Positions 3,448 to 23,920 of a stretch of 64,000 nucleotides of DNA are shown here, piece by piece. The notes under the pieces were generated by a model. The model ran no database searches. It was not told the origin of the DNA and worked only from the letters and a program-made list of their open reading frames with translations. Position 1 is the first letter of the stretch. Each line of letters begins with the position of its first letter. The DNA is from Acidobacteriota bacterium. GTDB lineage: Bacteria > Acidobacteriota > Terriglobia > Terriglobales > Acidobacteriaceae. A program made the position numbers and the translations under genes. The stretch spans positions 806,001 to 870,000 of the forward strand of contig JACPYL010000010.1 of the NCBI GenBank assembly GCA_016196065.1. The letters run 5' to 3'.

Positions 3448-3455
3448 AGTGCTGA

Positions 3456-3890
3456 GTTTCTTGTTTCTGGTTTCCTGTTTCTTGTGAGGGCATATGCGTG
3501 GACATCGCGACTTGGTGGCTTGGCAGAAGGCGATGGACCTCACGAAGAAGATTTACGTGTTAACCAATGCCTTTCCAAAGCACGAGGTTTACGGCCTGAC
3601 TAGTCAACTTCGGCGCGCTGCGGTTTCCATCCCGAGCAGTCTCGCTGAGGGAGCAGCCAGGAACGGACAGCGTGAGTTCAGCTACTTCATCAGTACTGCC
3701 CGGGGATCACTCGCGGAAGTTGAAACCCAGGTCGAGCTTGCGGTTTTCCTGAATTACATCCCGCAAGATGCCGCGAAAACCGTAATGGTATCCATTTCCG
3801 ACCTTGGGCGAATTTTGATCGGCCTGCGCAACTGGTCTTCGGGACCTCAAGTCAGCTCCGACAAGCAACCGGAAACCAGAAACAAGAAAC
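3456..3890. repeat. Inverted repeat pair enclosing the four-helix-bundle gene
   Basis: The left arm at 3456-3484 and the right arm at 3862-3890 are 29-base inverted repeats. The outer 20 bases (3456-3475 against 3871-3890) are a perfect reverse complement and the inner 9 match at 7 positions. The arms are built of stuttered words such as GTTTCTTGTTTCTGGTTTCC. The left arm starts 8 bases after the argF stop. The right arm lies inside the 3' end of the four-helix-bundle gene and encodes its last residues. The same words recur in the hairpin at 5874-5982. Confidence 0.85.
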
Positions 3891-3898
3891 TTGTATGA
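3494..3898 (+). CDS. Four-helix-bundle protein (S23-like, TIGR02436 family)
   Basis: A 134-residue soluble, mostly helical protein. The family pattern is clear: HRDLVAWQKAMDLTKKIY near the N-terminus, then LTSQLRRAAVSIPSSLAEG and FSYFISTARGSLAEVETQ. The family is related to proteins encoded in 23S rRNA intervening sequences and to the Avd accessory protein of diversity-generating retroelements; its general function is unknown. The ATG at 3494 follows GAGGG. The last residues, PETRNKKLV, are encoded by the right arm of an inverted repeat, and the stop overlaps the arcC start by four bases (ATGA). The gene separates argF from arcC, which suggests insertion into a metabolic operon. Any involvement in nucleic-acid handling is inference. 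Confidence 0.88.
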   Translation: MRGHRDLVAWQKAMDLTKKIYVLTNAFPKHEVYGLTSQLRRAAVSIPSSLAEGAARNGQREFSYFISTARGSLAEVETQVELAVFLNYIPQDAAKTVMVSISDLGRILIGLRNWSSGPQVSSDKQPETRNKKLV

Positions 3899-5873: not shown

Positions 5874-5982
5874 CAGTTGCAAGTTTCTAGTTGCTGGTTT
5901 CTGGGGAGTGCGTGAGCACACGCCAAATGTAGCAACGTACTTATAGATAGACTGGAAACCAGCAACTAGAAACTCGCAACTG
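5874..5982. repeat. Long intergenic hairpin between the carbamoyltransferase gene and rocD
   Basis: Arms of 28 bases at 5874-5901 and 5955-5982 are reverse complements with a single mismatch, around a 53-base spacer. Within the arm the word GTTTCTAGTTGCTGGTTTC differs at only about three of twenty positions from the arm enclosing the four-helix-bundle gene at 3456. No T-run follows, so it is not a standard terminator. It ends 14 bases before the rocD start. Confidence 0.88.
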
Positions 5983-21113: not shown

Positions 21114-21197
21114 AGTTGTCAGTTCTCGGTTCCCAGTTCTCAGTAGAAACTGAGCACTGAGGTTTTACTGAGAACTGGGAACCGGGAACTGAGAACT
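21114..21197. repeat. 32-base-pair hairpin between atpA and atpG
   Basis: Arms at 21114-21145 and 21166-21197 are reverse complements at 30 of 32 positions around a 20-base loop. The arms are made of stuttered words (AGTTCTC, GGTTCCC, AGTTCTCAG). The structure fills almost the entire gap: it starts two bases after the atpA stop and ends three bases before the TTG start of atpG. It would cover the atpG ribosome-binding region in the mRNA. No T-run follows, so termination is not expected. Confidence 0.9.
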
Positions 21198-23813: not shown

Positions 23814-23819
23814 AAACGT

Positions 23820-23915
23820 CGTTGGTCGCTCGTCGTTCGTCGTTGGCAACCGCGCCCACGACGAACACGCACCGCGAACGACTAAGGACTAACGACGAAC
23901 GACCAGCAACGAACG
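23820..23915. repeat. Inverted repeat between atpD and atpC
   Basis: Arms at 23820-23844 and 23891-23915 are reverse complements at 22 of 25 positions around a 46-base spacer. The arms consist of CGTCGTT/CGTTGGT stutters, and the spacer contains further copies of ACGACGAAC. It ends five bases before the atpC start codon. Confidence 0.75.
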
Positions 23916-23920
23916 AAGAT

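What the first reader, a model, noticed from the sequence alone, without database searches (positions are those of the whole stretch)
5874..5982. An apparent empty version of the same element two genes downstream
The hairpin before rocD has 28-base arms with one mismatch. Its core word matches the arm that encloses the four-helix-bundle gene at about 17 of 20 positions, but here the arms enclose only 53 bases. One element with a gene and one without it, in the same operon, resembles the relation between an autonomous element and its miniature derivative.
Basis: partly seen in the sequence, partly recalled or inferred. Interest (0 to 1): 0.75.

Follow-up and report, generated by a model that had tools for sequence, protein, structure and literature searches.

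The report
Gene-less copy of repeat-armed S23 element
A short DNA hairpin between two amino-acid metabolism genes is one of many gene-less copies of a selfish-looking bacterial element whose full form carries one small four-helix protein gene between mirror-image arms of repeated 7-letter words; the same layout recurs across many bacterial phyla, and I found no description of it.

Summary
The hairpin is real: 28-nt arms (27/28 paired), 53-nt loop, RNA fold z = -10. Every S23/IVP four-helix-bundle gene (PF05635) in this genome is boxed by inverted arms of tandem 7-nt (once 8-nt) units. So are 83 of 95 loci from the class and 66 of 80 loci from many phyla. Words differ widely (91 among 127 arm sets) but share a register, N-Y-Y-R-G-T-N, with G at 97%. 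Gene-less hairpins outnumber gene-bearing ones and use the words of the same genome's IVP elements (above all 2000 random draws). Across 200 genomes word arrays accompany IVP genes (p = 5e-14). At fixed sites relatives carry hairpins of different words, or none; an element can be inverted within its site. The 5874 hairpin resembles other gene-less copies more than the nearby IVP arms, so it is probably not that element's direct deletion product. No target-site duplication was found, and no transposase, nuclease or RT domain in the element. Most likely an intergenic relative of 23S rRNA intervening sequences, spread in trans through the IVP protein; that mechanism is inferred.

The parts
5874..5901 (.). 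left arm of the gene-less hairpin, CAGTTGCAAGTTTCTAGTTGCTGGTTTC (7-nt units)
5902..5954 (.). 53-nt loop; no IVP remnant seen
5955..5982 (.). right arm, reverse complement of the left arm with one mismatch
3455..3485 (.). left arm of the gene-bearing element, AGTTTCTTGTTTCTGGTTTCCTGTTTCTTGT
3494..3898 (+). S23/IVP four-helix-bundle gene (PF05635, TIGR02436), 134 aa, carried inside the arms; homologue of solved structure 2GSC
3861..3891 (.). right arm of the gene-bearing element; it overlaps the 3' end of the IVP reading frame
21114..21197 (.). second gene-less hairpin in the window, word AGTTCTC, 20-nt loop; its orthologous site in relatives carries other words
23819..23916 (.). third gene-less hairpin, word GTCGTTC, 46-nt loop
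45079..45164 (.). weaker gene-less hairpin, word AGCATTC/AGCACTC, 54-nt loop (score 13)

Best explanation
The hairpin at 5874-5982 is a gene-less (miniature, non-autonomous) member of a family of intergenic elements whose full form is [arm of 3-5 tandem 7-nt units]-leader-S23/IVP gene-[inverted arm]. Shown: the anatomy, the copy classes, the shared words within a genome, patchy presence at orthologous sites, and the genome-level association with IVP genes. Inferred: the IVP protein, a homologue of DGR Avd and of 2GSC, reads the G-anchored 7-nt register of the arms in the folded transcript or single-stranded DNA, and brings the element, with or without the gene, to new intergenic sites using catalytic enzymes of the host. 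The element is thus an intergenic counterpart of 23S rRNA intervening sequences, with a trans-dependent miniature form that behaves as REPINs do.
For: All 7 IVP genes of the genome lie between inverted repeat arms with a different word each (five of them statistically strong or seen by eye with period 7 or 8, L033 and L035 weak). 83 of 95 IVP loci of the class have arms above all 60 shuffles, 75 of them with period 7; 66 of 80 loci from many phyla, 58 with period 7. Unit register 3.93 bits against at most 2.41 in column-permuted controls. Gene-less arms match the words of the genome's own IVP arms, 36.6 against a null maximum of 33.1. Across 200 genomes, word arrays track IVP presence: median 10 against 0, Mann-Whitney p 5e-14; G022, the same-genus genome without an IVP match, essentially lacks them. 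Near-identical IVP-plus-arm sets occur at different host sites (6 pairs with IVP identity of 80% or more, all with matching arms). Sites without the element exist in relatives.
Against: No transposition was observed and no target-site duplication found (4.3% against 3.1% expected). The IVP protein matches only IVP/Avd-type families, with no known catalytic domain. The link between IVP identity and arm similarity can come from linkage alone. Six of 73 genomes with no IVP hit carry 10 or more arrays. Closely related genomes are not independent. No binding data exist.
Confidence: 0.6

Rival explanations
1. REPINs: palindromic doublets spread by a RAYT (Y1 transposase), with the IVP association incidental.
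For: Same architecture of short intergenic hairpins in many copies (PMC3116915); the genome has 6 Y1_Tnp matches.
Against: Where the Y1_Tnp loci have long palindromes (L335-L337) these are different (CAGCCGCGAAGCGGCG, CCCGGCGCTGAAGCGCCGGG), and none of the six has a match to the heptad words searched. Instead all seven IVP genes are boxed by heptad or octad arms.
Confidence: 0.07
2. Immobile regulatory or mRNA-stabilising hairpins. Arms grow by 7-nt slippage and stay matched through templated correction between arms; IVP genes sit in some of them and may bind them as regulators.
For: Fixed position between stop codon and start codon in the operon; at the 21114 site many relatives keep a hairpin while the word changes; 7-nt repeat hairpins with class replacement are known in the Nostoc trnL intron (PMC4476775).
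Against: Sites without the element in relatives (L108, L112); patchy IVP genes; related IVP-arm sets at different host sites; several word families each with gene-bearing and gene-less copies in one genome.
Confidence: 0.2
3. Classical MITE of a DDE insertion sequence, with the IVP as passenger.
For: Inverted repeats, small size, intergenic, multicopy.
Against: No target-site duplications; the gene inside is an IVP, not a transposase; arms are tandem repeats whose word differs at most loci.
Confidence: 0.04
4. Product of intergenic slippage and recombination with no function; the IVP association is an insertion preference of IVP genes for pre-existing hairpins.
For: Mosaic arrays with mixed words (L003, L010), one-sided arrays and a hybrid hairpin with unmatched arms (L317).
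Against: Word arrays are rare in most genomes without IVP, and gene-less hairpins use the genome's own IVP words.
Confidence: 0.09

Closest known systems
23S rRNA intervening sequences (IVS) with S23p/IVP ORF, e.g. the Coxiella IVS
   Same: Same protein family; ORF in the loop of a long terminal stem (28 bp in Coxiella); no transposase; origin unclear (PMC4990558). In CPR bacteria this ORF is one of the families found in rRNA insertions, and at shared rRNA sites some insertions carry an ORF and others are short and lack one (PMC11270868)
   Different: Here intergenic between protein-coding genes; arms made of tandem 7-nt words; many gene-less copies per genome
REPIN/RAYT
   Same: Short intergenic hairpins in many copies, thought to depend in trans on one protein gene (PMC3116915)
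   Different: Different protein without the Y1 nuclease; arms are word arrays with a G every 7 nt; the own genome's Y1_Tnp loci have other palindromes or none
Heptanucleotide-repeat hairpin of the Nostoc trnL intron P6b
   Same: Stem built of 7-nt units; whole word class replaced repeatedly at one site (PMC4476775, PMC3488679)
   Different: Within a group I intron; the passages read mention no IVP gene
Intergenic TAACTGA direct repeats of Beggiatoaceae, Cyanobacteria and Bacteroidetes
   Same: 7-nt intergenic units; the reverse complement TCAGTTA falls in the word class seen here (AGTTATC in L175, L179); a mobile repeat-binding protein was suggested (PMC4679880)
   Different: Mainly direct, one-sided arrays; the terms four helix, S23 and intervening do not occur in the paper
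Diversity-generating retroelements (Avd accessory protein)
   Same: Avd is homologous to PF05635 (PMC10053308; weak Pfam and NCBIfam matches)
   Different: No RT gene near this locus or the other IVP loci of the genome; TR and VR not looked for

Membership tests
S23/IVP protein family (PF05635, TIGR02436) | profile match above curated cut-off | tested here: met
   119.6 bits against 33.8, 110.1 against 24
23S rRNA IVS element | S23 ORF inside a long terminal inverted repeat | tested here: met
   (gene-bearing form; the 5874 hairpin itself has no ORF)
23S rRNA IVS element | located in a 23S rRNA gene | tested here: not met
   the element lies between OTC and kinase genes; no Rfam match in window 1-30000 or in 33 loci from other genomes
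23S rRNA IVS element | excised by RNase III | not testable with these tools
   needs RNA work
REPIN/RAYT | flanks or shares palindrome with a RAYT (Y1_Tnp) gene | tested here: not met
REPIN/RAYT | GTAG or CGTC tag at the palindrome foot | tested here: not met
   unit consensus NYYRGTN, 91 words; the outer ends of the 5874 arms read CAGTTGC
MITE of a DDE insertion sequence | target-site duplication | tested here: not met
   92 elements, at chance level
Diversity-generating retroelement | RT gene near the Avd-like gene | tested here: not met
   the single RVT_1 match in the genome lies on contig C29, none near the IVP loci
Diversity-generating retroelement | template and variable repeat pair | not tested
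   no RT at the locus, so not searched
Heptad-armed IVP element family (defined here) | inverted arms of 7-nt units with the G register | tested here: met
   5874 arms: period 7, units AGTTTCT, AGTTGCT, GGTTTC

The most novel reading that the evidence does not exclude
A pan-bacterial class of minimal mobile elements that encode only an Avd-like four-helix-bundle protein, move without a transposase, recombinase or RT of their own, recognise their ends by a G-anchored 7-nt register rather than a fixed sequence, so that the word can drift while both arms stay matched, and spawn trans-dependent gene-less hairpins; 23S rRNA intervening sequences would be the subset that landed in rRNA.
Probability: 0.4. 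Interest if true: 0.92.

Novelty: new variant of a known kind. Interest (0 to 1): 0.8.

Why it matters
S23/IVP proteins are encoded in a great many genomes without a known function, and the origin of 23S intervening sequences is described as unclear after more than 25 years (PMC4990558). A fixed architecture outside rRNA, with many gene-less copies that track the gene across genomes, gives that protein family a testable role (arm recognition and element spread) and offers one possible explanation for otherwise unexplained 7-nt repeats in bacteria. The concerted replacement of repeat words in both arms at a fixed site is also an unusual evolutionary pattern that calls for a mechanism.

Tried and rejected
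The first broad protein alignment had no stretch conserved enough for a contig scan; a narrower one worked. Target-site duplications: none above chance. RAYT as driver: rejected. Intrinsic terminator: the simple scan found none at either hairpin, and terminator-like sites overall were at chance. Rfam: no family in window 1-30000 or in 33 other loci. Chance: rejected by shuffles. Direct descent of the 5874 hairpin from the neighbouring IVP element: not supported. A PADLOC scan failed on wrong coordinates for the RT and was not repeated. No structure prediction was run, since a solved homologue exists.

Full report
Observation. RNA folding gives z = -10. The second inverted repeat, 3455-3485 and 3861-3891, encloses a PF05635/TIGR02436 gene at 3494-3898. 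The two cores agree at 18 of 20 positions. Both sets of arms are tandem 7-nt units (GTTTCTA, GTTGCTG, GTTTCTT and the like).

The gene-bearing form. The genome (5.53 Mb, 29 contigs) has eight PF05635 matches, two of which are halves of one broken gene. Each of the seven genes sits between inverted arms of tandem units, each with its own word: GGTGTCA, GTTCTCA, GTGATTA, GTTTCTN, GTTCGTC, GCTACTA, and an 8-nt word TTTGTAAT. Two of these (L033, L035) are weak and did not exceed all shuffles. In 95 IVP loci from this and related genomes, 83 have enclosing arms that beat all 60 dinucleotide shuffles and 75 of those have period 7; a few have period 8 (L096, L181, L191, L200, L201, L208). A scan of GTDB contigs returned 80 loci from Acidobacteriota, Planctomycetota, Firmicutes, Bacteroidota, Proteobacteria, Verrucomicrobiota, Chloroflexota, Gemmatimonadota and others; 66 have arms above all shuffles, 58 with period 7.

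The register. Reading inward from either end, 127 arm sets align to N-Y-Y-R-G-T-N with G at 97% and A or G before it at 93%; total information 3.93 bits against at most 2.41 when the columns of each arm are permuted. There are 91 different commonest words. So the sequence is largely free but the register is not.

The gene-less form. In 464 kb of the own genome (window plus 400 kb), 20 inverted repeats of score 16 or more were found, 11 of them heptad by a strict rule, only one of which encloses an IVP gene; loops of the others are 20-90 nt. None of score 16 appeared in shuffled sequence, and none that is heptad in 251 kb from five relatives without an IVP match. The 400 kb were chosen around known hits, so the density (13 gene-less in 464 kb, naively about 150 per genome) is probably too high an estimate. 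Arms of the gene-less hairpins match the genome's own IVP arms with mean best score 36.6, against 23.1 (max 33.1) for 2000 random sets of seven arms from relatives. Two families share the bases just inside the arms too (AGTTCTCAGTAAAACC in the 21114 hairpin and in L032; AGGAARACC in L118 and L031), and the octad hairpin in L128 repeats the L038 arm TTTGTAATCGGGTAATTTTGCAATCT. In the AGTTTCT family alone there are one gene-bearing and at least five gene-less two-sided elements, and many one-sided arrays.

Association across genomes. A word pattern (AGBTNTYAGBTNTYAG) was counted in 200 genomes of the order: median 10 with IVP (n = 127) and 0 without (n = 73), Mann-Whitney p = 5e-14, Spearman 0.59; the reversed control pattern is rare in both groups. 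Species are not independent, and six IVP-less genomes have ten or more arrays, four of them in one genus. Within the window's genus, G022, which has no IVP match, has essentially none.

Orthologous sites. At the carbamoyltransferase-aminotransferase site, G023 has a GTTCGTA hairpin, G001 a GTTGCTG hairpin, G027 a GTAGTCG one, and L108 and L112 have 39-40 nt spacers without any. At the OTC-kinase site the IVP gene is present in several relatives with other arm words, decayed but armed in G001, reduced to 34 codons in G027, absent elsewhere. At the 21114 site the flanks are sharp and relatives carry AGTTCTC, AGCTACT, AGTACCC, AGGTCTC or AGGTGTC hairpins, one hybrid with unlike arms (L317) and one single arm (L321). 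Gene-bearing elements can lie inverted at the same host site (L080 against L070, L074, L088; L073 against L075). Related IVP-arm sets also occur at different host sites.

What the 5874 hairpin is not. Its arms are closer to AGTTTCT-type loci elsewhere (L012 40, L018 39, L021 37) than to the IVP arms 2 kb away (30), so local derivation is not supported. No target-site duplications (92 elements, 4.3% against 3.1% expected). It is not tied to Y1 transposases: of six Y1_Tnp loci three have other palindromes and none has the heptad words searched. The one RVT_1 gene is on another contig. It is not terminator-like in a simple scan and matches no Rfam family.

Mechanism (inferred). The IVP is a homologue of 2GSC (five chains in the entry) and, per PMC10053308, of the DGR protein Avd, which is essential to retrohoming. 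I propose that IVP multimers read the 7-nt register of the folded arm, and that host enzymes do the chemistry; gene-less hairpins use IVP in trans. Shown are anatomy, association and distribution; binding, mobility and chemistry are not shown. Concerted word change in both arms could come from repeated replacement by other elements (hybrids such as L317 fit) or from slippage plus correction between arms; the data do not decide.

Known relatives. 23S rRNA IVSs have the same ORF-in-a-stem anatomy (PMC4990558), and insertions with and without ORF at shared rRNA sites are described in CPR bacteria (PMC11270868). REPINs (PMC3116915) are the functional parallel. The Nostoc trnL P6b stem (PMC4476775, PMC3488679) and TAACTGA repeats (PMC4679880) are the nearest 7-nt repeats; the latter paper suggested a mobile repeat-binding protein without naming one. 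No paper found in the library links S23/IVP genes to such arms; this is a limited search. Because the anatomy follows that of rRNA IVSs and the copy behaviour that of REPINs, I rate it a new variant of a known kind; the categorically new reading is kept as the novel case.

Noticed in passing
L302:525-1489 and L306:2125-2936: Octamer arms (ATCGGGYN)n enclosing about 0.8-1 kb at the site orthologous to the L118 hairpin, with no IVP gene noticed; possibly a sister element with another gene.
   Followed up: partly
L118:5732-5815, L131:15343-15418, L128:5802-5878, L131:7032-7136: Two other hairpin families without 7-nt period (CTGTCATCCCGAGCGAAGCGAGGGATCTGCA and GTAGAGACGCGGCTTGCCGCGTCT); the second begins with GTAG like known REPs.
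   Followed up: partly
L335, L336, L337: Y1_Tnp genes in the own genome flanked by their own GC-rich palindromes (CAGCCGCGAAGCGGCG, CCCGGCGCTGAAGCGCCGGG).
   Followed up: partly
L003:1500-1590, L010:1499-1560: Mosaic arrays in which one word grades into another (AGTTTCT into AGGTGTC), suggesting stepwise word change.
   Followed up: no
L317 (site of window 21114): Hairpin site with unlike arms: left AGCACTT units, right GTCGCTA units.
   Followed up: partly
L080 against L070/L074/L088; L073 against L075: IVP element inverted relative to unchanged host flanks.
   Followed up: yes
G202, G227, G133, G225: Genomes with many word arrays but no PF05635 match, all from one genus; lost gene, missed gene or another driver.
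   Followed up: no
window 3861-3898: The right arm is read as the C-terminus of the IVP protein, and the IVP stop overlaps the start of the downstream kinase gene.
   Followed up: no
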